47,909 bases of DNA, from positions 1 to 47,909 of the IMG/VR virus record IMGVR_UViG_3300042507_005008; one strand, 5' to 3'. Source of the stretch: a virus. Both the position numbers and the translations under genes were made by a program. Positions within the stretch are counted from its first letter, which is position 1, and each line of letters begins with the position of its first letter. This document shows, piece after piece, positions 14,601-31,400 of this stretch. Under the pieces are notes generated by a model. It had not been told where the DNA came from. It saw only the letters and a list, made by a program, of their open reading frames with translations, and searched no databases.

Positions 14601-16797
14601 TAGTACCTGTTGTTGTGCGGAATGCACCAAAAGCAATCTGGTTCTCTAGTTCTGCTAAACCATATGATCCAAGAGCGATAGAGTTTTTGCCTTTGGCTAT
14701 AGAACCATAATTGAGCGCAACAGAATTGATACCACTTGCCGTATTGTAGGATCCAATTGCCGCAGATTCTGTTCCATAAACTTTATTGTGATCTCCTATA
14801 GCAATAGAATTTTCTGACTCAATAATATTAAAAGTACCAGCAGTTAGTGAGGATAAGCTACTGCTGCCAATAGTATTATCCTCTCCAATAACTAAATTGA
14901 CATCATTAGTTATTTCTATGTCTCCGTCAACTCTCTGTTTAATGTTCGATGAAGTAATTTTTCTAGCTGGTGAAACACTATCTGTAAATTTAGGAATATA
15001 ATTATTTGTTCCTTCTATATGATCGAATGTTACATTGTTATAAGAAAAACTACCAGTAATATTACTAGCATTTCTGTAATAAGCGCCGTCTCTATCGTCT
15101 AAAAGATCTGCATTAAGATTGTTGACTTTTATACTATTCCCAGCTAAATCAAAAGGAGGAGAAGACGGCGGGGCTCCATTAGATAAAAATCTGATTTGAC
15201 CAACAACATCAATTCCTTGTAGAAATTTCTTTAGTGCATTGATTGTTTGTTCTTGATTAGTATTGATATAAATCTGATCAGCGATTTCTCTAAATAATAC
15301 TGTTAACTTATCTCCTTCTAAATTTTGAGTAATATAAATAGTGCTAGCAGACCCGCCATTGATATCGTCTTGAAAACTATTTCCATTGCCGTCAACATCG
15401 CCAACAGCACCAGAACCATAAATATTGGTTATAAGTCTTAATTGATTTTCTGTTGGGTAATATGCTAAAATACCAGTTTTGTTAGCAACTGTAGCACCAT
15501 ATTGAAACGTAAATCCTCGTGGTTCAGACGGTAGTATATTAGGACTATTTAAACCAAATAATGGAAGATTGTCATATAGACTTGTTTCTCCACCAGATAC
15601 AGCTAATCCACCAGCAACTGTTAAAAATCCATCCATCCTATCGCTTTCACTAGCTTTTAATGGTCTAAATCCTAGAGAATCTACGATATCGTTATAAGAA
15701 GCATAATAAACGCCATCTATAAGACCTTTAGCGTTTATACGAAATTTGGTTCCGTATTGATCACCAGAAGCGTGTAGGTTTGGTAGTCTGTCTAAAGAAA
15801 GAACACCGGTTAAGTTGGTAGAATCTCTATAGAAACTACCTTGTAAACCATCTAACAAATCTGCATCTAAGCCAGACCCAGATCCATCGTTGCCGGGATG
15901 CCATGGAGTATATCCTAAAATTGATAAAATATCTAATGCCGTTAATGATAATCCACTAACTACTCTGCCTTTAGAATCAGTAATAACTTTCGTGTATGTT
16001 CCAGCAACGCCTGTTTCCGATAGTGATATAGAATTTTCTTCAACTAAAATATCAGCAGATGCACCTATTTGTAATAGAACAGATCCATTTGGAATAGATA
16101 ATTGTCCACCACCAACTAAACCAGAGCCAGCCTCAATGGTGATACTAGATCCACTAACTACGATAGTACCGGTATTAAGAGGTAATGATGTTAGTTTTGT
16201 CCCATTATAATATATAAGTTGGTTTAAATTAAATATGTCATTATTAGTTCCACCTTTGCTAATTGGCACCATACCAGAAATAGCACCAAGACTCAGTTCA
16301 GCAGTTCTAGCTATGGTATTATCTACTACGATTTTATTACTAGAAACCGTTAAGCCTTCTCCAATTTTAATATCCAAAATAGCAGTATTATTATTTACTT
16401 GTGTTTTCTGAAGACCAGTACCAGGAATGATACCTGTAATAGCATTGCTGTTAGCAGAAGCTAGATCTACAATATCTTGGATAGTATAAGACGAACTAGC
16501 TAATTTGTTTCCGTCATATGATATCAAATATCCACTATTAAAACTAGTATTATTAGTGCCTCCGCTAGATACAGGTAAAATACTAAATGTCAAACCATCT
16601 TTACCAGCGGGGCCTGCTGGGCCAACTAATCCTCTTTCTCCTTGCGGTCCTTTTTCGATAGTTACCAAGTCTATGGAACTAGTAGTCAGATCAGATACAA
16701 TAATATTTGTTGTTGTTATCGTACCTTCTTCGGTTCGCAAACTTACTAATAAGTAGCGATTTGGTTGAAATTGTTCAGATACTGATACTATGCTCAT
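2656..16797 (-). CDS. Giant modular virion/fibre protein (about 4,713 residues)
   Basis: One uninterrupted frame of 14.1 kb, nearly a third of the window. The ATG at 16797 is chosen because it forms an ATGA overlap with the upstream stop. Modules in order: attachment-like N-terminus (1-48); Gly-X-Y collagen stretch (about 50-68); two GGTNN fibre repeats (about 75-200); two phage-fibre ADLLD units (about 305 and 565); YadA-like left-handed roll repeats such as NSIAIG and NSIALG (about 655-720); then thousands of residues of beta-rich sequence with Ig/cadherin-like units, for example WLSFDAINLVLSGTP near 1370 and later PTGL/SGTP units. The C-terminal kilobase is again Ig-like. It has few cysteines and no recognisable enzyme domain or transmembrane segment. 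It is probably a very long fibre or tail-surface protein; a tape-measure role is unlikely because the sequence is beta-rich rather than helical. Confidence 0.85.
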   Translation of the reverse strand: MSIVSVSEQFQPNRYLLVSLRTEEGTITTTNIIVSDLTTSSIDLVTIEKGPQGERGLVGPAGPAGKDGLTFSILPVSSGGTNNTSFNSGYLISYDGNKLASSSYTIQDIVDLASANSNAITGIIPGTGLQKTQVNNNTAILDIKIGEGLTVSSNKIVVDNTIARTAELSLGAISGMVPISKGGTNNDIFNLNQLIYYNGTKLTSLPLNTGTIVVSGSSITIEAGSGLVGGGQLSIPNGSVLLQIGASADILVEENSISLSETGVAGTYTKVITDSKGRVVSGLSLTALDILSILGYTPWHPGNDGSGSGLDADLLDGLQGSFYRDSTNLTGVLSLDRLPNLHASGDQYGTKFRINAKGLIDGVYYASYNDIVDSLGFRPLKASESDRMDGFLTVAGGLAVSGGETSLYDNLPLFGLNSPNILPSEPRGFTFQYGATVANKTGILAYYPTENQLRLITNIYGSGAVGDVDGNGNSFQDDINGGSASTIYITQNLEGDKLTVLFREIADQIYINTNQEQTINALKKFLQGIDVVGQIRFLSNGAPPSSPPFDLAGNSIKVNNLNADLLDDRDGAYYRNASNITGSFSYNNVTFDHIEGTNNYIPKFTDSVSPARKITSSNIKQRVDGDIEITNDVNLVIGEDNTIGSSSLSSLTAGTFNIIESENSIAIGDHNKVYGTESAAIGSYNTASGINSVALNYGSIAKGKNSIALGSYGLAELENQIAFGAFRTTTGTTVLEHGQYSTVAAYLKGIETHGSWISLSPVIQLPKEKTIAYNIELLMNKGLSSGVAHFSFTSGIINNATYRDPNNISNIINTTTVPNIGYKTEAYNNSQLRRHVHKWTYQDMSSGKEATKTQYVWAKSPPAQNLSVDLRYLYPYYFYTPENVAITGVFEKSHDGSLVLDIHRPRYYESFTQHPLNNTFVIQTQKPHQAVAGAMLECQFSSASMYLPPSGRYIVQGAPNSNSVAVTAPKWMAVKYGLPSGAKLVVNAPSGYDKFFNTNIPAAIQGTSIQYNSAYLVNQYGYALHTFIKPNMTIKIQYKDFSNNIYNYRRVITSITSSTININAPIKTIDINPTIISGPVSITIDDFSAHLFKSCNKLWVDGEALNILGAQTRTSPIFNTGENIVFVNDGGAGDINNPLAASLIGLQNSGFVYEPDAYGDSSFSITTATRIDRLIDGQSIEIAPLFTNNSGNVDIYARTDLACNYSSVLSDINVHTGVYVRYNIDNYQSIRLFDTNYQPLDFISAPMNYELVNGSFSEFNNKFRITRDKNRYFLYTNEALDYENNNIIPIRVRCTPQNINFSSFYEQVLYVYVQNLNEIPKVNIVLEPTGIPIDNVFVYSLPGNMFVEPDSGVLQYSANIKGGHPLPRWLSFDAINLVLSGTPDQCDIGSYSIDIKATDASGLYAFNNLIIEVSGNPVITSNVLASGISEILKINSIQLAKNTVLENSKDTLVGELLVNGGYNPYIFFGSASNSVSGIFMKGSDLFRHAQPTTKTFSNIVTLSGAPQLFGIGTNVFARSLPISDPSIGLSGNTKVTKTYRPTVLSGTPISGNLFIFDNIYIPYRDFAVFTGQYLGEQNLSECFGTNLRAKEISDFSIILGRGLIQEAKGLVLTENNDALDHEYSIPQLSFKVEQEGTIDDLKIEDDLSYLAYKDNTQKSVAWSKKISYSKLFDEKLENTLSSEVDTLIGDNESNFEYITHPVTLIDVFFTTENNYSIVTENKEKINGIIVDERVWFSTYPFRIRRNLRENIELLPTGIVYNPLRVVNPPTDDDNEGLFVSNIDYARSDLLHAYDSWTFLEHINNPILYVNGIGSNDTTQLITDDRNYTGYFYNSSPFEYAILSTEDNFGLIPETEKLNGSRIELSNRYELLDTTKIYPNNGKIFAELLEEELLCENNDRLVHDYAILAHSGSAYILFPGTINQIVLKYPTVYSYTATEVNNGSLGYYEDNLENRPTGLSFTEPDFYYSWGKLVPYYAYTNEYAIRLSNIYDRASTSGLLVYTGIAPADDNYFPEESLYNSVGLSSGDCPVNIPNSIINGMVVHDDLVGSQYVTGVATFYTSFAANDITITSNKDFNKDLRINDYVYLYEALSNQANALFPRTDTYTDVLSSTSNTIKVRNLFLYPSNRVVTHTGSIRLNLDRNHEQIIKSPDYVNRLPIKFNSVYNTNSARLPKNYLFDIIGVSGQKVVSSDNARYLLKSDEYLDSIVSGTYMTNGFKFFGSLFHDHEIIYDVRKLDKEFSSTYTNITFEYRKDTKILSLNLPTGIVSIFDNIRLSNFQPLSPSMIWDHNATYNTGFKVFKENLSIRNIDDVPDKDFVLLERSAAVLQPENKERLSFITDIFAASSSGTCYLDVNLTNRLDRGFILNYNDNLSKTTGHQYLDYNSGYSFTGIIPRYHKIISTTGTLNDTRIGYASIFNSGNQQWSSGIRTVRRAEPTDIGYVDFYHIYSTGFTNHINNIPYLNMKGVGSPERWYITDIISTSGSNKMLQFLYLGHNTNTIKIFGGIQTSSEDSGFSITKITYSQQTLIDKLADLGVVSGVTPIFTTGTNGLSGNLDITIPVTRFDTITIELNGNTTSNFNYLQLNTYVENTVNTPGLLLDSAIPIFTDKLYYPRNNQPLSNSFYILPSISTSTKYCNTNKPYNKNNTIYYNGNLIVIDNLSSVKSYCLENEQLRIKDLNRMPVSSGYARFIQKINPVNQLYSITGISLDGSLSIPSSIYDYQYASLRENTVRHLLPFGTGTGFLPNIGTISFIPHYSGTFDLINYNNIYLQSYGGYTARWPQDVDAVISNSPLTGVYAVFADEKICNSNKLCVTITPYLGSSFASLNSNDSYYFDFDSVASSISTTYRITDFINSNKISISPNYNSSLVGSSGLVYIIPSKYNIKTHLYPNIDNTFITQSLAVGLNTQLVQNSINYFDSSTKKWTHLFHLVKNIPIYSGYALQFNNDTTNIIYNNKDKIGITNLSIYNNTGMLFDNIGENFTIYSDSLGETIRISTSGGSPMLVTPASVNIPKIYISGLASYRTLTNASPLLYGYRAGSGWDIGVEIIPMNKTGVYPLTIIARDETGDSYKTVNMIIKDKKSVNTTYPTGYFTTSDTEWFLNFDTTGLDLLNDFPGNQGITLFGTPNDFSYDIDIRDASTISVQGYRLAGGGGSTIPFSTGIWNPVIRFADFYTSETIAVGTGTIKILSSLNDRPPFVPTLNKVKTDYYVDISQLQNISFYIPVYEQVANPSTFFSAPGINTTTSISWDGDTNRYIATVIPKNTGDSSYLSETKYIAGGQFSYNVNQYLYVDGSPSTVNYSSSTYNFNLTFYRPMMVSYYYNSSSSGIFSLDQPWTYEFALQEGVIKHRPDKPPRVKLYNTPSIGDNSNIDLSYKVRYRYNENGNYWIVLLEGKPDIYGRYAANTGTYNIKFTADDQIASSITGSFNITYKHTKSINYIQSNIYTTPNNEFFINADIVDKASGNKASNQITFAGNNSLFISPNQASMQFDSNLNIWEFYATGNKLIDKWDARLIVDTNSQYPSLTLQCKGIADDKITAVAKVNLLELQNNNLDIVEGLPIKITGINNGNQNTPFTPESGLIVQQGEKWQLNFKTIFGLQSPQNPPSIFLSGTPTVCSGYDPRLDPLYNTDLPPNSQLHKCIATQPLFNTADKSWNFSFSGDPSCLLSGELDFSIIAIDTNLANNPIYIEPSDSIQSVFTYIPTTQDHPVPNIVQGSAPEFNIKTAIKPGCDSYFNVYKFGPANRSVCPIPTGLSGIITSGSLPTGLTYSIQYSGPEGNLFNAPHYDNVNSGVLTIQGSVSYYPPSGSSEYPDKFYLTIIDARGKKKTQEIIFGTSVTPMAPNIYMTLYFENADPIFTPSTGNDKITMGGITVKQPEASVLEMTCYSTIPFSPHCAKFPVMYSGADSTSTDFLVLHPVASHSAQYTNIQNNSFIYFNMLELNNNDGNYYVKKATSLTGLPNHVPLNSFYIKSNESISSPHTGIAEIVISTPVVKAIADLATVFNVGDVTLSTEGCVLGNGRVAADLQGRYGIYGFVSPSFSGYIPTGGYFASSDTFGTGLRYNVVDDTSRLAEIKYTTCPETGFVRFSGVSLPPIYIEITDPPPLANRSYGDDGTTFSLNSRLAYGDSIIERNKPQNERAGTAYYTVTNLVSNSTIQSGSVSVAIQNSAPIRLTSSTLAQSANNKGATFRIDYSCAGGAFPTFDPNTNPTATPSIYSWVHKAGLLGDIPTENSFPAVTISYPDTFNIYSGELINYNSLNGQYGIRGLALGGYIPTDICIGGLCPDGYTNYPYLLSISGNNGSIWSSSSYLPSISGIILNSVVSRKFNNSGNIPDFTKTAGYYSAPTSLVVRNDWIASINSSPGQTDIYEVFDVNNLVEVTVTYTPPFQPTQILDVFITGLTSGNFDLGGLSVPNMGTRPIVFSKNYGSQSLNLDIDLKPVTRITNIDLSGNLIYIRHNNLSMTEATTNIILDKITSQYSDRFSSVFYTMEDKATILSVNSISNTGLVLIAGGGSTPSGIYRGFSTNDSIKIHSTIEDNIKIMPANIDSNTEGNFDFLISGRPNILYGQYNYRVITRENPLAPIFVLGWRPKAFYKDCIMNVGKPLSIVSSTVSWGQSSNSWTVTLNIDGGVYPALSQRMKVKIDRTGLGNWTYCGFNRFQPNTNKDTYNSTTGLTTITLSSSNGANWGPGIISSFDILVYDDSGSDTITINRQA

Positions 16798-17234
16798 GTT
16801 ACACAGTTTCCACAATCATCTTGTAAATCCGTATCGCATTGAAATGCGTCTGTGTCAGGTACATTACGTGGTACTAGACCTATTCCACCTTGTAAAATTC
16901 TAAATACTTTTCTGCCGCCACCAGAATATAAGTCATTGGGTTCTTGTAATTCTAGATCATATCTTGCAGAGCCGAACGTATAGTTTAAGGTTTCGGAAGC
17001 AGGGATTTTTAGAACAATTTTACCTAATAATGGATCTATAGTAAATTCATATTGAGAATTTCTTGTATTAGTGACAAATGTTCGAACGGTTGGAGAAGTC
17101 TGGTCCTCTATCCATCTTAATCTAGCACACCAATTCGTTAAATTAATTGGAAGTTGATTATCGTCTTTATATTCGAAAGCAATAACAAAAGCGGTTCCCT
17201 TTTCTATAGAAAAATTGTACTCTGCTGCTGGCAT
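16794..17234 (-). CDS. Small BppU-like virion protein, paralogue A
   Basis: A 146-residue protein beginning MPAAEYNFSIEKG. It is clearly paralogous to the 133-residue protein encoded at 34195-34596: both share the MPAAEYNFSIE start, a YKDD-x-x-x-PIN segment, WCARL, YDLELQ and a final FRI/IRI strand. The N-terminal beta-sandwich pattern (sequence describing a 'quasi-energy' strand followed by PINLT and an ARL/AR strand) is common in phage baseplate-upper or fibre-linked proteins. The C-terminus has a short Cys-rich tail (CDTDLQDDCGNC). Its stop overlaps the ATG of the giant gene (ATGA), so the two are co-translated and possibly partner: a plausible job is to attach the giant fibre to the virion. 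That partnership is inference. Confidence 0.65.
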   Translation of the reverse strand: MPAAEYNFSIEKGTAFVIAFEYKDDNQLPINLTNWCARLRWIEDQTSPTVRTFVTNTRNSQYEFTIDPLLGKIVLKIPASETLNYTFGSARYDLELQEPNDLYSGGGRKVFRILQGGIGLVPRNVPDTDAFQCDTDLQDDCGNCVT

Positions 17235-18471: not shown

Positions 18472-20073
18472 ATGATCAGATCCTGGGACTGTTTTGATAC
18501 ATTAATTAGTAGATATTATCACTATCCTTTATCAATCTTTCGTTTAATTCAAGAACAAACAAAAGATGATAATTTTATCACAAAAAGAATAAATGCAGAA
18601 AAAATATCTGAGAAAAAAACTCTAGAAGATATATATAAAAACTTACCAGAACACGATATGGATTTGGAATTAGAATTAGAAAAACAATATAGTTATCCAA
18701 TTTTAGAAAATTTTAATAAGATACAAGATGGTGATATAGTTGTTTCCGACATGTATCTTTCTAGCGAACAAATTCTAAATATTTTACGTTATCATGGTTT
18801 AAGTAAAGATATCACGGTCTATTCAACATACGGTAAAAAGGCTAACGGGTCCATATGGCACGACTTAAAACAAAAACATAATATAGCATATCATACTGGA
18901 GATAATTTACATTCAGATATAAAACAAGCCAGAGTTAATAATCTCAATAGTATGTATTATGGCGGATCATTTTTAACAAATCAAGAAAAGCTAATTGAAA
19001 GATATAGTCCTTATTTAGCATATTGGATAAAGTATATCAGATTAAATAACCCGTACTTTGTACCATACCAAAAGATTTTATTTGATAACGGATCAATTTC
19101 TTATTATTATGGTTTATTTTGGATTAAAGAACACAAAGGCGAAGTTTCTATCTTAGAACAAATTAATCAAAATAATAAGCACATTGTTTTAAGAAATAAA
19201 TTTAATAATGAGACTATAATTCTATATAAAGATATTGATCAAATAACTATACTCGATGAGTCTACTAATAGTAGTAAGGATTTAGTGTCAGCCTGGCAAG
19301 AACAGCCTGTTAACACAAATAGATTTGATGAAAATATATTATGGACAGAACAATGTTCGTATAATATTCCATTATTAATTAATAGTAGTTATTTGTTGCC
19401 TAAAAAAATAGTATTCTCTTATAGAGATTGTTATTATTGGAAAAAAATATATGATAGCATATTTGACACTAATGTAGATATTTTGGAGTCTTGTAGAAAT
19501 TCTTACTATTATCCATATAGTCAAGAATATATAAACTATGTTCTACAAATCACCAAAGAAAAAACGATTGTAGATCTACATGGTACAGGATACAGTTCGG
19601 GACATTTTTTCTCGAATCAAAAAAGAGAGCAAAACATACTATTTATATCAGAACACAGCGATAATGTAAATAAAAATATATCAATCAAAAATTTAACTAT
19701 GTGTTTTGACAGAATTTTTAATGAAGATCCTGCCTCAACAAGATTTAATCATACTAGAACGGCATCCAAAAATGGTTTGAGGTGTTGTAGTGGAACGGTG
19801 TTAGAAAAATTCAATATCCCACCAAAATTGGGACAAATGGTTGGTTGGGACGATAAATGTATTAGGAAAAAATCAGAACATAATCAAGACATATGTAATA
19901 TTTTTGACAATGCAGTAGCGTGTGCTGTTAACAAATCCAAGGCGTATAATTTATATATAAATGGTATAGAGGATTTAACAGAAGTTTTGCTTAAGAGGAT
20001 GAATGGGGATAATTACACAAATACTGTTATTCATTCGTTATGGGATCCAATTAAAAATATAAAACTAAAATGA
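18472..20073 (+). CDS. HAD-superfamily hydrolase-like protein
   Basis: A 533-residue protein on the strand opposite to its neighbours. The N-terminal 160 residues carry the HAD signature: WDCFDT at 5-10 with nucleophile D6 and D9, VVSDMYLS at 90-97 (motif II), a basic GKKANG at 121-126, and TGDNLHSD at 142-149 with D144 and D149 (motif IV). This supports a phosphohydrolase or phosphotransferase. The remaining 370 residues are not recognised; one landmark is VDLHGTGYSSG near 367-377, resembling segments in HAD/glycosyltransferase-type surface polysaccharide proteins. Its stop overlaps the sulfotransferase start as ATGA. A role in modifying a sugar or nucleotide-sugar for surface decoration is inference from the partner gene. 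The coding sequence is strongly AT-rich. Confidence 0.75.
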   Translation: MIRSWDCFDTLISRYYHYPLSIFRLIQEQTKDDNFITKRINAEKISEKKTLEDIYKNLPEHDMDLELELEKQYSYPILENFNKIQDGDIVVSDMYLSSEQILNILRYHGLSKDITVYSTYGKKANGSIWHDLKQKHNIAYHTGDNLHSDIKQARVNNLNSMYYGGSFLTNQEKLIERYSPYLAYWIKYIRLNNPYFVPYQKILFDNGSISYYYGLFWIKEHKGEVSILEQINQNNKHIVLRNKFNNETIILYKDIDQITILDESTNSSKDLVSAWQEQPVNTNRFDENILWTEQCSYNIPLLINSSYLLPKKIVFSYRDCYYWKKIYDSIFDTNVDILESCRNSYYYPYSQEYINYVLQITKEKTIVDLHGTGYSSGHFFSNQKREQNILFISEHSDNVNKNISIKNLTMCFDRIFNEDPASTRFNHTRTASKNGLRCCSGTVLEKFNIPPKLGQMVGWDDKCIRKKSEHNQDICNIFDNAVACAVNKSKAYNLYINGIEDLTEVLLKRMNGDNYTNTVIHSLWDPIKNIKLK

Positions 20074-20651
20074 TATTATTATACGATAAAGAAACGGCTA
20101 TTATTACATTACCAAAAACTGGTAGCACCTCTTTATTTGAAACATTGTGTCGCATTCCGTATAGTGGTGTTTTTTGCATCGGGCCTAGTGGGGATGACCC
20201 CAACTACTATGATCATCATTCCGTAATATTACCACAAGCACCTTTTGAATGGAGAGTTTTGATAGTAGTTAGGAATCCTCTTCAAAGGTTTGTGAGCTTA
20301 TGGGGACACCTGGCCAAAGAAATGGTGTTAAATATGGAAAGTCCGCCAACCGTCGGAGAATTTGTGGATATTATTAGTAATAATGATCATGATTTTTATT
20401 TTTATCAATGGAATCAGACTAAAATTTTAGAAAAAGCTAATTATAAATATTCTATAATAAAAAGTGAACATATGGAAGAAGAGTTGTTAGAAAAAGAAAT
20501 TTTACATAATAAAGGAGACCTTCTTAATCTAAATGTTTTTAATATTACTCAAAAGAGTAAACCATATGATCAGATACTCGATAAAAAAATGATAGAAAAA
20601 TTAAGATGGTGGTGGGAGCCTGATGCTATTAAATTTGAGTATGAGATCTAA
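20070..20651 (+). CDS. Sulfotransferase family protein
   Basis: A 193-residue protein with both PAPS-binding signatures: the 5'-phosphosulfate loop PKTGSTS at residues 15-21 and the 3'-phosphate motif VVRNPLQRFVS at 66-76. These are established hallmarks of sulfotransferases, which move sulfate from PAPS onto hydroxyl or amino groups of glycans or small molecules. At 193 residues it is shorter than many family members (usually 250-300), so a reduced acceptor-binding region is likely. Its ATG overlaps the HAD stop (ATGA), so translation is coupled. It ends one base before the convergent leftward stop at 20652. The acceptor is unknown; a virion or host surface glycan is possible. Confidence 0.85.
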   Translation: MILLYDKETAIITLPKTGSTSLFETLCRIPYSGVFCIGPSGDDPNYYDHHSVILPQAPFEWRVLIVVRNPLQRFVSLWGHLAKEMVLNMESPPTVGEFVDIISNNDHDFYFYQWNQTKILEKANYKYSIIKSEHMEEELLEKEILHNKGDLLNLNVFNITQKSKPYDQILDKKMIEKLRWWWEPDAIKFEYEI

Positions 20652-21869
20652 CTAGCTAAAAACTAGCTGATCCCCATTTCCAGGAACAAATTCAAAAGTT
20701 TTATCGTCATAGACATATATCCATCCAAATACAGCAGTAGGACAGTTAAAAGCACCGGCCGCAATAGGATCTGTAATAGAACTAGGGACACCACCAAAGA
20801 CTACGCTAACAGATATGCTTTTTCCAGAAAGAGACGCTTCATACCAGTGTGCACCAATTCCTATAGTAAGATATTTCCGTCCATCAGCAGCTGTTAATCC
20901 ATAGCCATCACATAAGGCTTTACCCGCTTGGACAATAGCTTGGTTATTATTAATTTTGGTGATGTAATTGGTATTGGAGGGTGGACAAAAACCATTCCCT
21001 AGATAATTACCAACAGCGGCTATAGACCAACCCAGATTTAAGCCAAAACTAGGCTCTGTGGCTGTGTTGCCTAAATTATCAATATTGATGGTTAAAATTG
21101 AATCACATAGTGGCGTAGTGTCTTGTTCTGACTCGATTACTATACAGCTTTGTACTGTTGGTTTCTCGATTGTTGTGATAACGGCTGTATTTATTAATGA
21201 TCCAGCTATTGGTTTAGTTTTACACCAATTACATTGTTGTATATCATCAACACATGGCGCATTGCTGCATTTACTAACTAAGGTGTCTTTAAGATTTTTA
21301 TACAAAATAATTTTTTCTAAATATGTTTTAAAGACTATTATTAAATCAGCGTATGATAATGTATATATATTACCATTCTTATCGTTAAATAAAGGCATGG
21401 GGGCATCATTGTCATCATCGTACAACGCCTGAGCGTACGATAGAATACTCTTATATGACATTTGATCAGCTATAGATGACCCTAATATTGCATTTTGATT
21501 ATTAATATTAACTAGTATACCATCTTCTATGGTGGCATTGTATGATGCATTAATTAAATTGATTTGCGCATCTTTAAAAGTTTGCAGCGGCGGGTCACTA
21601 ATGGTTCCACTAGCAATATATCGATAAATTAAATAACACTCCCATTCGGTAGTATCTTCATTGTCATCATTAATATTACAAGTAGGGACGGGATTGTTAG
21701 ACAATTCATTAATAATCTTAGTTTGTCCTGTAGTTTTATCTGTGCGAAGTACAGAAGCATTTTCTGATTTGTTGGTAATAATACTCGTCCCGCTCTGTAT
21801 TACATCAATAAATGCATAAGAGTATTTATTAGAACAAAAATCATTAATATTAGTATAATTACATATCAT
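20652..21869 (-). CDS. Adhesin-like paralogue 3 (DUF4376-like core, distinct C-terminus)
   Basis: A 405-residue protein, third of three coupled paralogues. ATG 21869 is chosen because it starts the shared MIC-x-Y-x-N-I segment and follows the upstream stop by one base. The shared core runs to about residue 220: SYAFID, a VLRTDKTTGQ strand, WECYLIY, DGILVNINN, SYAQALYDDDNDAPMPLFND, and a helical LKDTLVSK end. It resembles the DUF4376 type domain found in phage tail proteins. Unlike its two partners it lacks the EGF-like Cys-rich segment and ends with a beta-rich domain of about 150 residues (GLNLGWSIAAVGNYLG, IGIGAHWYEASL, FGWIYVYDDKTFEFVPG). The role is probably a receptor-binding or tail-associated protein; this is inference. 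Confidence 0.7.
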   Translation of the reverse strand: MICNYTNINDFCSNKYSYAFIDVIQSGTSIITNKSENASVLRTDKTTGQTKIINELSNNPVPTCNINDDNEDTTEWECYLIYRYIASGTISDPPLQTFKDAQINLINASYNATIEDGILVNINNQNAILGSSIADQMSYKSILSYAQALYDDDNDAPMPLFNDKNGNIYTLSYADLIIVFKTYLEKIILYKNLKDTLVSKCSNAPCVDDIQQCNWCKTKPIAGSLINTAVITTIEKPTVQSCIVIESEQDTTPLCDSILTINIDNLGNTATEPSFGLNLGWSIAAVGNYLGNGFCPPSNTNYITKINNNQAIVQAGKALCDGYGLTAADGRKYLTIGIGAHWYEASLSGKSISVSVVFGGVPSSITDPIAAGAFNCPTAVFGWIYVYDDKTFEFVPGNGDQLVFS

Positions 21870-21870
21870 A

Positions 21871-22944
21871 TTATATATACTCACATTGTCCATCAATACA
21901 AGTACCATTTTGTGTGGATGGTCCTGACCAATTAGAAAATGGAGGATATCCTAAATAAGACTCGCAATCTGTAATATTTCCAGGTACTACATATGCTTTA
22001 AAGCAGCCATATGAACCTTCGGACCCACCACAAGAATATCCAGGCGGACAATTACAGTCATCACAAGATACTACACTACAAGTGCCACTATCAACACATA
22101 TTGTACGTTGACACTGAGCTACGCAAACTCCATCATCACAGCATTCGCCACTATCACACAAACTAACACATTGTCCATCAACACAAGTTTCACAACTATT
22201 AGAGTCACAAGGCGGATCACAGACCCCTGTGGTAACATCTGAAATTTCTTGATATGTAGAATAATCTATTACAATATTAGACTGAATAATATTTTGGCTA
22301 GTTTTATTATTACAATAATATTTATTTGAAATATCATCTGATGTTTTGATGGTCTGTAACTGATTTAATAGATCGTCTTTAACTACTTTTTGTTTAGATA
22401 CCGTTTCAAAATATTTTGTTAATACTAATTTTAGAGTACTATAATTTAAATAATAAGCAGTATTATTAATATCTAAAATATATGGCATAGCACTGTTAGT
22501 ATTTTCGTTATATAGGATATTTGCTAAACAAATAATATTACCTAAATGTATTTGATTTTCGATTGTTCCGTCTAATATAATAGTGTTGTAGCTGTCAATG
22601 CTGATAGAAACGCCATCTTGTAAAGAATTGTCATAGTTTTTGAGCACAGAATCCGTTTGCAGAGTGTTCGTTACTAAAAGATCAGGACTATTGACAACAT
22701 TACCATTATTAACATATATTACATAACAGTCCCAATAACTAATAACTTCTACTAAATCGTTATTATCACATGGTTCAATAAATAAATTGGTATCAGAAGA
22801 TATTGTAATTTTTTGTCCAGTATCTTTATCTGTACGAATAACACTGGTAACTAAATCCCCAGAAGCTGATGTGGGGGTGGTAGTGTACTGGTATGAGAAT
22901 TTATTAAGACAATAGTCGTAAATATTTTGGTAGTTACATATCAT
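21871..22944 (-). CDS. Adhesin-like paralogue 2 with Cys-rich C-terminus
   Basis: A 357-residue protein. The ATG at 22944 overlaps the upstream stop (ATGA) and begins MICNYQNIYDYC, matching the other two copies. Residues 1-225 are the shared core. Residues about 240-320 are Cys-rich: repeated CDPPC, SCETCVDG, SLCDSGECCDDG, AQC and CDDCNCPPGYSC units, like disulfide-bonded EGF or knottin-type modules. The tail (YLGYPPFSNWSGPSTQNG) has another Cys pair. Such Cys-dense domains are unusual in cytoplasmically assembled phage proteins, because disulfides would form only after lysis. The spacing pattern suggests a host-binding or stability role, but no family is certain. Confidence 0.7.
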   Translation of the reverse strand: MICNYQNIYDYCLNKFSYQYTTTPTSASGDLVTSVIRTDKDTGQKITISSDTNLFIEPCDNNDLVEVISYWDCYVIYVNNGNVVNSPDLLVTNTLQTDSVLKNYDNSLQDGVSISIDSYNTIILDGTIENQIHLGNIICLANILYNENTNSAMPYILDINNTAYYLNYSTLKLVLTKYFETVSKQKVVKDDLLNQLQTIKTSDDISNKYYCNNKTSQNIIQSNIVIDYSTYQEISDVTTGVCDPPCDSNSCETCVDGQCVSLCDSGECCDDGVCVAQCQRTICVDSGTCSVVSCDDCNCPPGYSCGGSEGSYGCFKAYVVPGNITDCESYLGYPPFSNWSGPSTQNGTCIDGQCEYI

Positions 22945-24074
22945 GGAGAACAACCTCCAGGACCTCTCCATGCTTCACATTCTAAACAACAGTCATATTC
23001 ACTGGTATATAGATTACCATTAGGATACTCTCCAAAATCATTAGGAATATTTCCAGTACAAGTATAATATACTATATTAGTGCTTGGGGATGTATATGGT
23101 AAGTTAATTTGATCACATATATCGTCTTCGCCGCACACCCAGCATCCACAATCTCCGCAAATCCCATCATTACAACATTCTCCTTCATCGCACAGATCTA
23201 CGCAACTACCATCAATACATTCTTGACAAGAATTTGGATCACATGGCGGATCACACAAATTATTAAGTTCTTCACAGCTTAAAGTACTAAATTTAATAAT
23301 AATATCATTACTGCCTGATATATTGGTCAATTTATTATATGTGGTAGTGGGTAGACTAGTAAAAAATATTTGTTTTTGTATATCGTCTATGCTAGATGCA
23401 TTATTAATTTGAATTATTATATTATCTAATATTAGTTTATAGTTTTTTAATTTATTGAAATAATTAGAAAGTATATTAGTTAAATTGTAGTAATTTAAAA
23501 AATGAGCATTGTTATAATAATCAACTAAAGATGGTAGTGGATCCTTACTATCATTAATATTCATAAGAGTAGCTAAAGATAATATGTTACTAAAATTAAT
23601 AATATCATCATTTAAAGCTGGTAGAAGAATAGTATAGTTAGTGGTTTCGGAAACAACAGTATTAGAATACGCACCATTTTCAGCTATTGTAATATCTGTA
23701 GCAAAATTATCTATTGTAATTAAAATTCCATTAGTTAAAGTTGTATTATAAGTGGTTGTGACATTTTTTATTTGCTCTTCTTTATATTTTGATAATGATG
23801 GATTATTTATTATTCCATTATTATTTTTATACCATAAATAGCATTCCCAGGCTGTAAGGGATGCGTTTTCATCATTAGTATCGCAACTATAAATTTGCAG
23901 AGAAGAGCTTGGCTCTAATAATACTTTTTCTTGAGTATTTTTATCAATTCTATATACTGATCCATCGTAACCAGTATTGGGTATAACATAACCATCTTTG
24001 AGAATAAAACTAGCATATTCATAGACGTATTTGCTAGAACATAAATCATAAATATTGGAATATCCACATATCAT
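22941..24074 (-). CDS. Adhesin-like paralogue 1 with Cys-rich C-terminus
   Basis: A 377-residue protein, first of the three tandem paralogues and directly downstream of the 1,279-residue fibre gene with a ten-base gap. It begins MICGYSNIYDLC and carries the shared core with a TAWECYLWY motif. Residues about 275-320 form the Cys-rich segment (CDPPCDPNSCQECIDG, DLCDEGECCNDG, CGDCGCWVCGEDDIC), close to that of paralogue 2. The C-terminal 50 residues (YTCTGNIPNDFGEYPNGNLY, CCLECEAW) again hold paired cysteines. An insertion near residues 125-150 with YSNTVVSETTNY distinguishes it from the other copies. Its stop overlaps the next start. Confidence 0.7.
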   Translation of the reverse strand: MICGYSNIYDLCSSKYVYEYASFILKDGYVIPNTGYDGSVYRIDKNTQEKVLLEPSSSLQIYSCDTNDENASLTAWECYLWYKNNNGIINNPSLSKYKEEQIKNVTTTYNTTLTNGILITIDNFATDITIAENGAYSNTVVSETTNYTILLPALNDDIINFSNILSLATLMNINDSKDPLPSLVDYYNNAHFLNYYNLTNILSNYFNKLKNYKLILDNIIIQINNASSIDDIQKQIFFTSLPTTTYNKLTNISGSNDIIIKFSTLSCEELNNLCDPPCDPNSCQECIDGSCVDLCDEGECCNDGICGDCGCWVCGEDDICDQINLPYTSPSTNIVYYTCTGNIPNDFGEYPNGNLYTSEYDCCLECEAWRGPGGCSP

Positions 24075-24084
24075 AAATGATATC

Positions 24085-27000
24085 CTATGTAAACTTAAAT
24101 TCTGATATATCTATACAGACAATATTACCTGATTTTAATCTAATATATCTATAATTCCAATTACCATTTATAACTCTTGAAGATGTTGCTGAAGTGAAAC
24201 TCGAACTGTTGAATGCTTCTATGAGTGTCCAGTTGACATTATCAGTACTGCCTTCCACACTGGCATGATTAATATAGGTTGGACCATAAAAATAATGAGC
24301 AGTAACTGTTATAGATTTAACATTTCGTATCGAACCAAAATCGGCAATTATAAAAGCAGCACCAGTACTACCAGCACAACTGCTAAAAGTACTACCAGCT
24401 GCATTCACATTATCTTTAAGATCATTTATATTAGGATAAAATAGATTACCAATTGTAGTACTCTTTGCTCCACAACAAGGAGCACTACTAGTAAATGTCC
24501 AAGAAGATATTGGTCCATATGACGGCGATGTTGTGGTGACAAATAGGACAACAGGATTACTACTAAAATAACTTGTATTTTTTGTAGATAAAGACAAACC
24601 ATATGTTCCTGGTCCGGGTACTGTTAGTGTAGCACTTGTTGCGGTATAATATGTACTAGTTTTATTTGATGGAGTTGTTATATTCCAATATTGTAAATAA
24701 TAACTAATATTACCTGGAATATCATAGCCACTAGCTGCTGGTCCAGATGGAGCAACCCATGTCAAATTAATACCGGTTGCAGAGCTTGCTGTTGCGGTAA
24801 AATTGGTCGGAGAAGATGGTGATGAAAGTCCCTTGGATATACATTCATGATTAAGCCATGATGAAACACCGCTAGGATTATAGGCTCTAACGCGAGCACA
24901 GAATGATACACTATTATGATTAACGCATTGAGCATTAAGATTAACATTGCCTGGGATGCTGTAAGTAGTTAATTGAGTACTAAAATTGCTATCAGCAGCA
25001 TATTGTACTTCATATCCTGTTATTGCTAATCCTCCATTATTAGAGGGTGTTTGCCATTTAAAAACAGGAATGTGAGAACCAACAACAGTATTGCCATAAG
25101 TAAATCCGGTACAAGTAATATTAGAACCAATAATATAATAAGAAGTATTCCATGATCCCCAAGAACTAGAAGTAATTCCATTCTTAGAGATACCACTATA
25201 ATATGTCAAACCATTCATTAAATATACATATACAATACCAGTTTGAGATGATGTTAATGCTCCGGCCTGAATGGCAGCAGTGCGTATGTCGCTATCATGT
25301 GTATAAGGATTTCTTCCCCATATTGGACCCCCACTATAAGGAGTAGTTACTCTAACTCCATAAATAGTATCTAATTGACTATAGTTTGTCATATTTATCG
25401 CATTATTAATAGTCATATTGAATGAGCCATTCTGCGGAACTGCTGTAAATGACAATGTACTATTTAATGGTGGAGATGGAGCAGAGTAAGGCGGCACCGG
25501 AGTAGCTTGGCCAATATTAGAGAATGATCCTGTGCCTATGGTATTAAGAGCCCTAACTCTAAAATAATAATTAGTATTATTAGTCAGCGACGATATTGAT
25601 GTTTGTAAACCAGTTACGGTTGTATTATTTACATTAGTAGCAAAAGTAGAGCTAGTGCTATATTGTAAATTATATCCAGTAATTGCAGATCCTTTGGATA
25701 CTGGCTTATACCAGCTAGCAAGCACAGTAGTATTTCCTGGATTTAAATTATATAGCAATGGACTATCCGGAACTTGCTTACTGAGAAATGTTGATGAACT
25801 GTTGGCACTAGATCCAACACTGTTATTAGCTTTTCCTCTAAAATAAAAAGTACTATAATTACCAGTTATTGGAACATCAAAACTAATAGAACTTATATTG
25901 TTTTGTGTTGTTAGTGTTAATAGATTACTAGTAAAGCCAGACCCAGAAGAAACATATATAGTATAATTAATAATTGGAGAACCACCATTGTCTGCTGGTG
26001 GATTCCATCCTAGGTTTATAGTATCATCATCTATCCAATTAGCAATAAATCCAGATGGAGCATTAGGAATTGTCAGGGGCTTATTGGGTACAGCTAGCAC
26101 ACCTGAAGAATATGGTCCGTAACCTAATTGGTTATAACCTCTCATTCTAAAATAATACGTGGTATTATTTGTCAAACCAGTAACAGTGATAGGCGTATAG
26201 TTAGCAGTATGCGAAGAGGAAGTTACGCTAGAAAAAGCACTATTGGTACTACGTTCTAAACCAAAGAAAGAAATAACATTTCCTCCATTGCCGGTTGATG
26301 GTAAATAAGATATGGTTATAGAACCATCTCCAACCGATGTCGATAAGTTGATAGGTGCGCTTGGTACTGTTTTAGCCAATGTGAAAGAAGAATGAGTTCC
26401 TGTGCCAGCAAGATTAATAGGAATAATTCTAAAATAATAATTACCGGTCGATGTTAATTCACTGCTAAATTTAGCTATCTTAAACTCTATTTTGTTATTT
26501 TTATAGTATAGGGATAAACCTTGAGAATTTGTTGTGGGTGATGTTGTAGTTGGAACACCAACATAAAAAGTCGAATTGTAATTTGGTGAAGTATCCACAT
26601 CAGGAAAATTAGCATACATTGATCTATCGATACGATAACCAGTAATTGTGGATCCTCCGTTATTAGATGGAGCATTCCAGCTTACATATGTTTCATCAAA
26701 TCCCCAAACGCCGCTCAATGAGCTAACACCAGACGGAACATTATACAATGGCGCGACCTCAAATATATTTGATTCTACTGATTGTCCATAAGAATTACTA
26801 CTATAAAGCTTGATATAATATGAGCTAGAATCAGACAACCCGGTAATACTACCAGAAGAATCTGTAAATGGCTGTGTATTTACTATTTCGTTTGGTGAAG
26901 TGCCGTATAGTGCTGTATATGATATTGTAGAATCACTGTTGGTTGGTGGGTTCCAATCCATATCAATTTTTCCACTGCCTCTTATTATTGAAGCAAAATC

Positions 27001-27924
27001 TATTTTTCCTGGTTCTTTACCATATGGAATTTCATCGTCAATAAAAAATTCTATACTAAGTTCTGAATATAAATTTTTAGCATTAGCTATAACATTTAGA
27101 TATGCATCGTTACTAATAGTAGCAGTAAAATTTTCGATTAGACTATTGTTATTTTTAGCAACTGTTATTTTTGCATTATTTGATCTGGGTAAAACAGGTA
27201 ATGGGGTACTAACTCCAAATTTTTTAGCGCTATTACCAGCACCAGTGCCAGCCTTGAGGGTTGTTTCTACTTTTTGATAAAATCTTTTGCATTTATTGAG
27301 TTCTTCATTGTAGATTAAAGGCTTAAAGTTAGTAACTACTGAACCAATCTCTAGTTTAGCTCGACCTATATCAATAATTGAGGAATTACTTAAAGCGCCA
27401 GACGGAGATATTTCAACCATAAGTGTTGAAGCATTATCTGGAACAATAAAAGAGTTACTATACAAAGTCCAAGCGTCTGTTGCTAATGAACCACTAAAAG
27501 CAGCATCGCTAATTTCTATTTTACCGTTCGCCAACGAATTAAAATCTGTGCTATAGTAAACTCTACCATATACTAAACCAGTCCAGTTACTATCGGCTGG
27601 TTTTTTGGCATAAAAACTAAAGGTTGTTGTTTTCCCTCTTAGCCCTGCTGATATATCGCTATCTATAGCTTGAGATAAAACTGGATAAGAACCGGAAGAC
27701 AGTGTTTGTAGTCTAATAATATTAGTAGCATTATCTAGTCCAACATTGCCAGCGATTCTAGAAGCTTTATTTGAACCGTTAGAAATCATATACCAACGAT
27801 CTGCTGTAAAACCACCAGCATAAAATGGTGTTCCTCTTTGCCATATATCAAAATTACCATTAATTAAAAGATTATCATTACTACTTCTAGTAATATTTTT
27901 AGCATAATTTAATATCTTGACCAT
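24085..27924 (-). CDS. Multi-FnIII fibre protein with C-terminal discoidin-like domain
   Basis: A 1,279-residue protein. Residues about 17-205 form a beta-rich domain starting LLINGNFDIWQRG, a pattern typical of phage structural proteins with a carbohydrate-binding-like fold. About seven fibronectin III domains follow (roughly 310-1130), each with a W-x-P or S-W-x-x-P strand, NNGG/NGGS turns and a YYFRVRA-type strand. Residues about 1140-1278 resemble an F5/8 type C (discoidin) domain: ADFGSIRNVKSITVTA, VEGSTDNVNW, YRYIRLKSG and a final ISEFKF. Discoidin domains often bind glycans or lipids. The gene sits between a 55-residue ORF and the adhesin triplet, so it is likely the stalk-and-tip protein of a fibre. 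No enzymatic motif is visible. Confidence 0.8.
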   Translation of the reverse strand: MVKILNYAKNITRSSNDNLLINGNFDIWQRGTPFYAGGFTADRWYMISNGSNKASRIAGNVGLDNATNIIRLQTLSSGSYPVLSQAIDSDISAGLRGKTTTFSFYAKKPADSNWTGLVYGRVYYSTDFNSLANGKIEISDAAFSGSLATDAWTLYSNSFIVPDNASTLMVEISPSGALSNSSIIDIGRAKLEIGSVVTNFKPLIYNEELNKCKRFYQKVETTLKAGTGAGNSAKKFGVSTPLPVLPRSNNAKITVAKNNNSLIENFTATISNDAYLNVIANAKNLYSELSIEFFIDDEIPYGKEPGKIDFASIIRGSGKIDMDWNPPTNSDSTISYTALYGTSPNEIVNTQPFTDSSGSITGLSDSSSYYIKLYSSNSYGQSVESNIFEVAPLYNVPSGVSSLSGVWGFDETYVSWNAPSNNGGSTITGYRIDRSMYANFPDVDTSPNYNSTFYVGVPTTTSPTTNSQGLSLYYKNNKIEFKIAKFSSELTSTGNYYFRIIPINLAGTGTHSSFTLAKTVPSAPINLSTSVGDGSITISYLPSTGNGGNVISFFGLERSTNSAFSSVTSSSHTANYTPITVTGLTNNTTYYFRMRGYNQLGYGPYSSGVLAVPNKPLTIPNAPSGFIANWIDDDTINLGWNPPADNGGSPIINYTIYVSSGSGFTSNLLTLTTQNNISSISFDVPITGNYSTFYFRGKANNSVGSSANSSSTFLSKQVPDSPLLYNLNPGNTTVLASWYKPVSKGSAITGYNLQYSTSSTFATNVNNTTVTGLQTSISSLTNNTNYYFRVRALNTIGTGSFSNIGQATPVPPYSAPSPPLNSTLSFTAVPQNGSFNMTINNAINMTNYSQLDTIYGVRVTTPYSGGPIWGRNPYTHDSDIRTAAIQAGALTSSQTGIVYVYLMNGLTYYSGISKNGITSSSWGSWNTSYYIIGSNITCTGFTYGNTVVGSHIPVFKWQTPSNNGGLAITGYEVQYAADSNFSTQLTTYSIPGNVNLNAQCVNHNSVSFCARVRAYNPSGVSSWLNHECISKGLSSPSSPTNFTATASSATGINLTWVAPSGPAASGYDIPGNISYYLQYWNITTPSNKTSTYYTATSATLTVPGPGTYGLSLSTKNTSYFSSNPVVLFVTTTSPSYGPISSWTFTSSAPCCGAKSTTIGNLFYPNINDLKDNVNAAGSTFSSCAGSTGAAFIIADFGSIRNVKSITVTAHYFYGPTYINHASVEGSTDNVNWTLIEAFNSSSFTSATSSRVINGNWNYRYIRLKSGNIVCIDISEFKFT

Positions 27925-28449: not shown

Positions 28450-31400
28450 TTAGCCGCACATGAGCGTACAAGCAACAAGATATGAATCATCTGAATATTC
28501 TGTTATTTTATTTACTGAAGAAACTTTGCCTATGGTACTAGATCGTACAATATCATCATTTTGGGCTATTGCTGTACCATCTCCAGCACTTTCTAAAAGA
28601 TCACCGGATTGCACAATACCTTTTACTCTAACGTAATATGCTCCCAAACCAGCAACATACATATCTCCAGTACTAGCATAATTTTCATCCCAACCTAAAA
28701 ATACTCCGTAAACTCTTTTGCTTTTTGGAATATCGCTTATTTTAACACGTACTAATCTATCACTTTTACCATCAATCCATTCGCATGTTTCATCTAAAGT
28801 TTCTAAAACTGTACCACGTAAAATTTCTGGTTTACTATTATCTATTAATTGCGACCAGTGAGATCCACAGAAAGCATTATAACTAACAGTATTTCCAGCT
28901 ATACTAATAGATCCCTCAAGAACAGCATCTTGATATAATGCAACTATGGTTCCGTCAGCAGCTTTTAGATTTAATCGTAAACATTCAAAGGATGAGCGGC
29001 TGACGCTGATGTAGTCGGTGGCGATTGCCACGCCGTTGGTGTTTGCACCTGCTGGGTCTGTGGTTGTAAATTGTCCAACTAATACATTTCCGTTAGCATC
29101 TACCCTAAATCGTTCTGCTCCACCAGCCGTGCTAATGCAAAATATATCGGCCCCAGCACTACCAAGAAATGGTCCATTACCAGTTGAACCATTATTTAAT
29201 TGAACACCGTATTTTTCAGTAGCAGCAAAAAACTGAGTACGTCCATTGCCTCCAACTCGTACTCTTTCTACTCCAACAGTATCAAAAGTTATATTATTTC
29301 CAACACTTCCCATATCTGGCGCATATGTTACAGCAGTATCTTGAAAAGCTAATCTGCTTCTGGTTCCTCCGGTATTGTTTAGATATGTTGTGATATTATT
29401 GGTTGCACTAGCACTACCAACAACGTGTAAACGATAAGATACCGTAGCTGTTCCTATTCCAACATTTCCACCTTGTCTATTTAAGATTAATGCTTGATGA
29501 CCAGTTTCAGCATTATTAGTAGATTGAATCTCAGCATATTGACCAACACCGAACTCATAATAACAACTCATTTTTAATCTTTGATCAAGATTATCAATAA
29601 GAATACTAGTTCGTCCACCGTTATTATCTTGCATTACTGATAATACTTCGGGTGGGCTTGTTGATGCTGCTCCTATTCCAACATTTCCAGCACTAGTTAT
29701 TCTCATTCTTTCAGTATTATTAGTCCCAAAAACTAATGCCTTATTAGGCTCAACTCTTATTAAACCATCTTCTGTACCCATTAATCCTATTAATAAGCCA
29801 CTAGCGGTAGTAGTATCCGTATTCGATATTCGTAAATAAACATCGTCAGCGGATGATCCGTGGATCTGGAGACGTTGTGTGGGAGAAGATGTTCCTATTC
29901 CAAGATTACTTCCGTCAAAAGTTAAATTACTTTCAGCATTAATTCCAACACTACTTCCAGTACTAGTAAGTATTCTATTATCACCACTATTAGCTATTGT
30001 GGGTAATAATCCAGTAACTCCACTACCAAAATTAGTAATGTCAGATATGGTATGAGTATGATTTAGTTGAGCATATTGTGCGGGACCTCCTAAACCAGCC
30101 CACTCTACAACATCTCCAGAAGCTCCTGGAGAACTTAATAAGAAAGATGTTCCATTTGTAGCAGTATAGTCTTCACCATCCAGTAATTTAAATCCATTGT
30201 AATATACTTGTAGATTACCAACTAAATAATTTGGAGTAACAGTAAAAGTATCTTTAGCTGTTGTTAATATCTCATATCCAGTAATGGCAACCGCATATAA
30301 ATTTATTGTTAAGTTTCCATCATTATCATTATAAGAAACACTAAGTCCTGTTCCGGCAACTATTCCTGTGCCTATTATATCCATAACATCTTCTGCTGAT
30401 ACTGCTCCGCCAGATGATGTGCTATTTATTGTATAATTTCCATTATTAGAAAATATGCTAATTCCTGTTCCAGCAATTATATCTTTAACTGGTAATAGTC
30501 CGCTTACACCACTATTAAAATCGGTAATTTGACTACTAGAATGAGTGTGACCACTCAAGCTAACTCCGGTACCATTCACCAAAAGATTTTGACTAAAGTT
30601 ACCAGTACCAACAACATCTAGTTTATATGATGGTGAGCTAGTACCTATGCCAACCCTATCTGTGCTGGCGTCAGTAAATAAAAGATTAGTATCTGTGTCG
30701 CCCTCTACTCTAAGATCTAAATTAGCCCCCTGTTCATTAACTGTAAACTCGCTGTTGTTCATCCTAATATAGTAACCAAGATATGAGGTGCTATATCCAG
30801 TTAAAGGAATGGAGCCTTGTCTTATAAGTCCAAGGTTTATAGTAGATCCTTTAAACTGACTAATCCCACTATCGTATATGAGGGTATATTCATCTACTAA
30901 TAAGGGATAACTAAAATCGCTGATTACATTATTGAGATCTTGTATATTTTGTGAGGAGATGTTGGTTAAATATCCCTGTAAGGCGTGATTGCCCCATCCA
31001 TGAGCAGCATTCCAATTGGTTGAATCACCGCTAGTGGCTGTAATAACACCACTAACATCCAGCTTAGAAGAAGGTGAAGATGTGCCTATACCAATATTTG
31101 TTCCATTGTCATAAATTATACTATTATTTAAACTATTAGTTCCAGTCCATTTTGTAATAGAATTGGCTGAACCAGTTCCTGTTGGAACCGCTGTGCCACT
31201 AACTTGTAATGTAGTAAAATTTCCACTAGAGCTAGGAACCCACAATCCACTAACACTATTATACTGTAAAAATTGTCCATTAGTCGCACCGGTTACAGCA
31301 ACATTATGAAGCTCTTCCAACTCATAACCATTTTGAACTCTAACCTCAATAACTCCTTCGTTTTGATGAGTTCGTACAATAGTTCCCATAGCCACAATAT

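What the first reader, a model, noticed from the sequence alone, without database searches (positions are those of the whole stretch)
20652..24074. Three coupled paralogues with swapped C-terminal domains
The three genes share an N-terminal 220-residue core, and start/stop spacing (ATGA or one base) couples them. Two end in EGF/knottin-like Cys-rich domains and one in a different beta-rich domain. This looks like amplified receptor-binding proteins with interchangeable tips, unusual because of dense cysteines in a phage.
Basis: partly seen in the sequence, partly recalled or inferred. Interest (0 to 1): 0.75.

Follow-up and report, generated by a model that had tools for sequence, protein, structure and literature searches.

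The report
Shuffled tips on three phage proteins
A phage from an environmental sample carries three sister genes side by side whose front parts stay constant while their often cysteine-rich ends are swapped as ready-made cassettes, in related phages even from one sister gene to another, which looks like a way of changing what the virus can hold on to.

Summary
Three adjacent genes (A 24074-22941, B 22944-21871, C 21869-20652, minus strand) share a ~220-residue core. All 8 related viral records (6 distinct phages) carry exactly three copies in the same order. The A, B and C cores form separate clades; the C-termini do not follow them: in 10 of 12 same-slot pairs with cores at least 90% identical, tips are under 60% identical. 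One phage (L002) is a visible mosaic: nearly identical to the window's phage on both sides of a ~500-bp block that instead matches another phage. The same tip type also sits in different slots. Exact matches between sister genes (up to 51 bp, two phages) lie in the linker before the tip and at the next gene's start, so the tip looks like a recombination cassette with two arms; one phage has lost tip A. The predicted core has a DUF4376-like fold (tail-fibre chaperone/cap type), though Pfam's sequence model does not match. EGF or knottin membership is not supported, and receptor binding is inferred. Best reading: fibre-tip caps with exchangeable adhesin tips, a new variant of modular phage adhesins.

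The parts
22941..24074 (-). Gene A (377 aa): core plus Cys-rich tip
   Evidence: one of exactly three family members in each related record
23256..24074 (-). Core of A (273 aa)
   Evidence: 97% identical to L002 A while the tips are 43%
22941..23255 (-). Linker (CDPPCDP...) and tip A, 18 Cys of 104; same tip type in slot A of L004 and L008
21871..22944 (-). Gene B (357 aa from the shared start)
22222..22944 (-). Core of B (241 aa)
   Evidence: AlphaFold model m647a60a66472
21871..22221 (-). Linker and tip B, 20 Cys of 116; same tip type in slot B of L002 and L008 and in slot A of L006
20652..21869 (-). Gene C (405 aa from the shared start)
21120..21869 (-). Core of C (250 aa)
   Evidence: AlphaFold model m88cdd6acacb3: blocks 2-21 mostly pLDDT 78-93; Foldseek matches to DUF4376 proteins
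21207..21590 (-). Part of core C (residues 94-221) covered by most structure matches: helix, hairpin, helix, hairpin, long helix
20652..21119 (-). Tip C, Cys-poor (4 of 155), unlike the slot-C tips of the five other phages; keeps only the 'PLCD' of the linker
22920..22944 (-). Start of B, proposed 3' homology arm for tip A
   Evidence: Inferred; in L006 the starts of B and C share 25 exact bases, in L004 20
21845..21869 (-). Start of C, proposed 3' homology arm for tip B
   Evidence: Inferred, as above
24085..27924 (-). Tail-fibre gene directly upstream (1279 aa; fn3 repeats, LCCL, F5/8 type C)
   Evidence: conserved upstream of the triplet in the relatives
20070..20651 (+). Convergent sulfotransferase-like gene that ends against gene C
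   Evidence: Pfam Sulfotransfer_2, E 1.3e-4; present in the relatives

Best explanation
The triplet encodes three tail-fibre-tip proteins. Each has a constant chaperone/cap-like core that probably docks on a trimeric tail fibre (most likely the 1279-aa fibre just upstream) and a C-terminal tip that probably contacts the host surface. The tip is a recombination cassette. Its 5' arm is the conserved linker or the end of the core; its 3' arm is the start of the next gene or, for gene C, the end of the convergent sulfotransferase-like gene. Homologous recombination between phages, and between sister genes, replaces whole tips while the docking core is kept. Shown here: three conserved slots, vertical descent of the cores, exchange of tips between phages and between slots, shared arms in two phages, and a DUF4376-like fold in the predicted core. 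Inferred: virion location, docking on the fibre, receptor binding, disulfide bonding of the tips, and homologous recombination as the means.
For: All 8 related records carry exactly 3 copies, between the same fibre gene and the same convergent gene pair. Core tree: A, B and C each one side of a branch with support 100/100, 100/100 and 99/99, and L001+L002 and L004+L006+L008 grouped in each. 10 of 12 same-slot pairs with cores of at least 90% identity have tips under 60%. L002 versus L001 DNA identity: fibre 98.9%, core A 98.0%, tip A 54.1%, core C 93.2%, tip C 45.3%. L002 C against L003 C: core 74.8%, tip 92.7%, Fisher p 5e-14; in 60-base steps the switch is at about 660-720 and the switch back at about 1140-1200. 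Slot changes: tip type B of L001/L002 is in slot A of L006 (59-65% identity, E 1e-40; cores 35%), and a tip type is shared by L006 B and L008 C (E 1e-14). Arms: 51 exact bases between L006 A and B and 32 between L004 B and C, both in the linker; 25 and 20 at the starts; codon-shuffled controls at most 16 in 360 trials. L003 A ends inside the linker and runs straight into B's start. Foldseek: 35 BFVD matches at E of 0.001 or less for C; 19 of the 50 rows listed are named DUF4376 and no other domain name appears; same for B, 19 of 50.
Against: The Pfam DUF4376 model finds nothing in 6 of 6 records at E up to 10, and no Pfam family matches. PDB searches give no clear match: best E 0.23, and Z 6.1 to prefoldin. 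Tips could not be modelled. In the window's own genome, L002, L003 and L008 no sister-gene match of 16 bases or more exists, so the arm evidence comes from L004 and L006 only. The 3' part of the fibre gene also varies in L004 against L006 and L008, so exchange is not limited to the triplet. Only 6 distinct phages are known; host and virion content are unknown.
Confidence: 0.68

Rival explanations
1. A, B and C are transient assembly chaperones of three different fibres. They leave the fibre after folding, and their tips recognise the fibre, not the host.
For: The core resembles DUF4376 chaperones, of which V22 gp27 is reported not to stay on the fibre (passages read). Several fibre genes lie nearby, and one upstream fibre has different C-termini in relatives.
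Against: Tips A and C differ between L001 and L002 although the adjacent fibre is 98.9% identical, so the tips do not track that fibre. Known chaperones of this type end at or near the DUF4376 part, while these add 99-155 residues (one tipless case excepted).
Confidence: 0.15
2. The cysteine-rich ends bind metals or act in redox chemistry and have no recognition role.
For: 12-20% Cys in the Cys-rich tips; one tip-bearing member scores weakly on an iron-sulfur protein family (narH), probably by its Cys spacing.
Against: Slot C accepts Cys-poor tips (4-5 Cys in 122-155 residues: L001, L002, L003) as well as Cys-rich ones (L004, L006, L008). Cysteine is therefore not what the slot requires.
Confidence: 0.1
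3. Tips diverged in place by fast mutation under selection, or by a diversity-generating retroelement, without exchange of cassettes.
For: Tips are the most variable part; a neighbouring fibre has an Mtd_N-like domain, a domain known from a retroelement-diversified protein (recalled).
Against: The L002 mosaic, tips more alike than their cores, and the same tip type in different slots need exchange. Reverse transcriptase (PF00078) found in 0 of 9 records; the control search found it in 4 of 14 named genomes.
Confidence: 0.03

Closest known systems
DUF4376 tail-fibre chaperones: Alteromonas phage V22 gp27 and A5 gp9 (PMC7289586, PMC10579305)
   Same: Encoded directly downstream of a tail fibre; similar predicted fold of the core to DUF4376 proteins; proposed as fibre caps (abstract and passages read).
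   Different: V22 gp27 has 195 residues with DUF4376 at 92-184, A5 gp9 239 with 138-231 (table passage), with no extra tip. Here three sister genes each carry an added, exchangeable C-terminal tip. The Pfam sequence model does not match.
gp38 adhesins of T2/S16-type phages (Trojet 2011; recalled, seen only as citation and passing mention)
   Same: Small protein encoded after the fibre gene, bound to the fibre tip, with modular and variable distal part; this is what the triplet most likely works like.
   Different: No sequence link found (PHROGs). Here there are three paralogues, Cys-rich tips, a DUF4376-like core, and tips moving between paralogues.
Diversity-generating retroelements (Mtd of phage BPP-1; recalled)
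   Same: Fixed scaffold with varying recognition end.
   Different: Whole unrelated tips are exchanged; no reverse transcriptase in 9 records.
Invertible tail-fibre ends of phage Mu (recalled)
   Same: Alternative C-termini on a constant front part.
   Different: All three tips are intact and in the same orientation; no silent copies of the tip-B type were found in 8 records.

Membership tests
DUF4376 / Tfa-type tail-fibre chaperone | Match to the Pfam DUF4376 model | tested here: not met
   0 of 6 records at E up to 10; no Pfam hit for 18 family members beyond two stray hits at E 0.29 and 0.49
DUF4376 / Tfa-type tail-fibre chaperone | Same fold | tested here: met
   Predicted cores only: Foldseek E 4e-6, probability 1.00, target-normalised TM up to 0.66; E 1.7e-5 to a named DUF4376 protein for B
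DUF4376 / Tfa-type tail-fibre chaperone | Gene directly downstream of a tail-fibre gene | tested here: met
DUF4376 / Tfa-type tail-fibre chaperone | Protein ends at or near the DUF4376 domain | tested here: not met
   17 of 18 members have a further tip of 99-155 residues; comparison lengths
DUF4376 / Tfa-type tail-fibre chaperone | Needed for folding of the fibre | not testable with these tools
   Needs co-expression
gp38-type fibre-tip adhesin | Modular, exchangeable distal part on a conserved docking part | tested here: met
   that the core docks is inferred
gp38-type fibre-tip adhesin | Sequence kinship to gp38 | tested here: inconclusive
   No PHROG named as adhesin matched; which PHROG holds gp38 was not checked
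gp38-type fibre-tip adhesin | Binds the host receptor at the fibre tip | not testable with these tools
   Needs binding assay
EGF-like or knottin domain | Match to a curated domain model | tested here: not met
   No EGF or knottin family among Pfam hits at E up to 1 for all 18 members
EGF-like or knottin domain | Defining disulfide connectivity | not testable with these tools
   Tips modelled with low confidence
Diversity-generating retroelement | Reverse transcriptase nearby | tested here: not met
   0 of 9 records; records may be incomplete

The most novel reading that the evidence does not exclude
A, B and C are the three different subunits of one heteromeric cap on a trimeric fibre. Each virion would then show three different tips at one fibre end, and shuffling of tip cassettes among three fixed slots would generate combinations of host specificities. 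The conserved count of three, the slot-specific cores and the close gene spacing are consistent with this but do not show it.
Probability: 0.22. Interest if true: 0.82.

Novelty: new variant of a known kind. Interest (0 to 1): 0.6.

Why it matters
Phage host range is known to evolve by exchange of fibre parts, but here the unit of exchange can be read off the sequence: a complete tip with two likely arms, moving between phages and between three sister slots. If the tips bind receptors, it is a natural plug-in system for small, often cysteine-rich binding domains on a cap-type scaffold. It would also give a sequence rule (core, linker, tip, next start) for finding host-range cassettes in uncultured phages.

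Tried and rejected
Relatives outside viral contigs: gene A had no match in 50,697 phage records and the tip-B sequence none; no relative in genome contigs for the family or for the HAD-like neighbour. The sample ids of six contigs were not found in the paper library. A neighbour-gene search added five distant contigs (L043-L047); those parts of their ORF list that I could see (output was cut) showed no triplet, and they are in no count. Retroelement: rejected. Silent tip reservoir: a search of 8 records with the tip-B alignment gave only places inside the three genes. Recombinase: Erf in 0 of 5 records, a RecA-like gene in 1 of 5; this neither supports nor excludes a phage-borne recombinase in the others. 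PDB fold searches gave nothing clear; absence there proves nothing. Tandem repeats and known RNA families: nothing relevant. Profile hits to narH (E 4.4e-5, one member), AgaS and SopA were set aside as chance or composition. Paper searches showed no description of a DUF4376-like core with Cys-rich tips in their listings; that is not proof that none is in print. Counts use one of each duplicate pair: L005 (as L004) and L007 (as L006) were left out of the 18-member set, and L001, which is base-for-base the window over 17,254 positions, stands for the window. L003 A (20 residues after the core, tipless) was left out of the BLAST of tips.

Full report
What is there. On the minus strand the window has three genes in a row: A (24074-22941, 377 aa), B (22944-21871, 357 aa) and C (21869-20652, 405 aa), if each is started at the shared MIC-Y-N motif. 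A overlaps B by four bases, and one base separates B and C. BLASTP between the three gives 31-32% identity with E from 5e-51 to 1e-29, far beyond chance. After the common part, A and B have a linker beginning CDPPCD and a Cys-rich tip (18 of 104 and 20 of 116 residues); C has a Cys-poor tip (4 of 155). Twelve other ORFs of the window have 0.65% Cys together.

Surroundings. Directly upstream is a 1279-aa gene with fibronectin III repeats, an LCCL domain and an F5/8 type C-like domain, matching tail-fibre PHROGs. Further genes are a terminase, a portal-like protein and further fibres, one with an Mtd_N start domain. Downstream and convergent are a sulfotransferase-like gene (Pfam E 1.3e-4) and a 533-aa gene with a distant HAD-like match in one phage record (31% over 36% of the gene). 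The order fibre, A, B, C, sulfotransferase-like, 533-aa gene recurs in the five relatives listed (L008 reaches only into the last gene).

Relatives. Four scans of the viral contigs, with the three window genes aligned or with one slot each, returned the same 8 contigs. Two pairs are duplicates, leaving six distinct phages: L001 (identical to the window over all 17,254 positions compared), L002, L003, L004, L006 and L008. Every one of the 8 records has exactly three copies. No match was found in isolated phages for gene A, and no family member in genome contigs.

Core against tip. A tree of 18 cores puts A, B and C each on one side of a branch (support 100/100, 100/100, 99/99) and groups L001 with L002, and L004, L006 and L008 together, in every slot. 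The triplication is therefore older than these phages, and cores descend with the phage. Tips do not. Of 12 same-slot pairs with cores at least 90% identical, 10 have tips below 60%; the exceptions are A of L004/L008 (89%) and B of L001/L002 (92%). In these percentages the linker counts as tip and raises the tip values. In sliding DNA comparisons of three phage pairs, identity falls from about 90-100% to roughly 20-60% over most tips and returns at the next gene.

Exchange caught between phages. L002 and L001 agree at 97-100% in most of gene C's core and after gene C, but between about bases 660 and 1200, counted from the start of C in L002, L002 agrees with L003 at 80-100% and with L001 at 40-87%. 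Elsewhere L002 agrees with L003 at 62-87%. Core against tip identity for L002/L003 C is 74.8% against 92.7% DNA (Fisher p 5e-14). The tract starts in the last ~100 bases of the core and runs to about the end of the convergent gene.

Exchange between slots. Tips grouped by BLASTP without the linker: type 1 in slot A of L001, L004 and L008; type 2 in slot B of L001, L002 and L008 and in slot A of L006; type 3 in slot C of L002 and L003; type 4 in slot B of L006 and slot C of L008, with weaker similarity to slot A of L002 (E 6e-9 and 1e-8). The cores of the slots concerned are only about 35% identical. The tip was thus placed in different sister genes at some time; the direction is unknown.

Arms. 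Searching each genome for exact matches of 16 bases or more between its own sister genes gave 6 matches, in L004 and L006 only: 51 bases (L006 A/B), 32 and 16 (L004 B/C) and 17 (L004 A/B) in the linker, and 25 (L006 B/C) and 20 (L004 B/C) at the start codon. Codon-shuffled controls had a longest match of median 11 and at most 16 in 360 trials. Conserved peptide sequence contributes to these matches, so they show likely arms, not proven crossovers. In L003, gene A stops within the linker, and its last codons overlap B's start by 11 bases, as expected if a tip is lost between the two arms. The window's own three genes have no such match; any exchange there is older.

Structure. Two AlphaFold jobs were run on shallow alignments (18 and 12 sequences). 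For C the core is well modelled (most blocks 78-93) and the tip is not (under 50); for B the mean is 62.7. Foldseek against viral models gives DUF4376 proteins: 35 matches at E of 0.001 or less for C and 10 for B. Of the 50 rows shown in each listing, 19 are named DUF4376, the others being unnamed or uncharacterised. Sequence models disagree: Pfam DUF4376 finds nothing at E up to 10 in 6 records, though one PHROG of unknown function matches 4 of 18 members (best 7e-5). I therefore call the core DUF4376-like in fold and do not file it in the family. Solved structures give no clear match.

What is known of such proteins. In the passages I read, DUF4376 proteins downstream of fibres are tail-fibre chaperones: V22 gp27 is essential for an active fibre and does not stay on it (PMC7289586, passages). 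A5 gp9 and V22 gp27 resemble intramolecular chaperones and may act as transient caps (PMC10579305, abstract and passages). A Campylobacter prophage fibre needs its downstream DUF4376 protein, which is compared with the Mu protein that stays bound (PMC7882524, passages). The gp38 adhesins of T2-like phages are small proteins attached to the fibre tip; I know their modular variation from recall and from mentions only.

Mechanism. The most economical reading is a cap that kept its docking part and carries an exchangeable end facing the host. That tips change while the adjacent fibre stays 98.9% identical (L001/L002) speaks against tips that fit that fibre. That slot C takes Cys-poor as well as Cys-rich tips speaks against a function that needs cysteine as such. 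Cysteine-dense ends may simply be stable scaffolds once oxidised after lysis; this is inference. Why there are always three is open. A mixed trimer with three different tips is the boldest reading and is untested.

Verdict. The function is inferred, the EGF/knottin label is unsupported, and the whole is a new variant of modular phage adhesins, notable for cassettes shared among three conserved sister slots.

Noticed in passing
L063:2455-7840: A related phage contig (connector 45%, HTH gene 70%, sigma-like gene 56% identity to window genes) has three tandem proteins with 40, 40 and 28 Cys before the connector gene and a fourth with 34 Cys after it, all ending in LSLD or FSLD followed by x-(I/V)-P or similar, and without Pfam match.
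   Followed up: partly
L062:5572-7524 and L071:371-1309: Cys-dense proteins (65 Cys in 650 aa, from a start chosen by the ORF finder; 39 Cys in 312 aa) in two other viral contigs, with linker-like similarity to the triplet.
   Followed up: no
window 28450-32031 and the fibre genes upstream of the 1279-aa gene in L003, L004, L006, L008: The fibre before the 1279-aa fibre has different C-termini in relatives: an S74-like chaperone end in L003 (E 3e-4), a similar end by eye in L004 and L006, others in L008 and the window.
   Followed up: partly
L004:6239-6800 (3' part of the 1279-aa fibre gene): Second variable block, identity 0.5-0.8 against L006 and L008, in the region of the F5/8 C-like domain.
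   Followed up: no
window 18472-20651 (+): Conserved convergent pair: HAD-like 533-aa gene and sulfotransferase-like gene, in a phage that also carries a GDP-mannose 4,6-dehydratase (42775-43764).
   Followed up: no
window 2656-16815 (-): A 4719-residue single ORF among the tail genes, Cys-poor (29 Cys).
   Followed up: no
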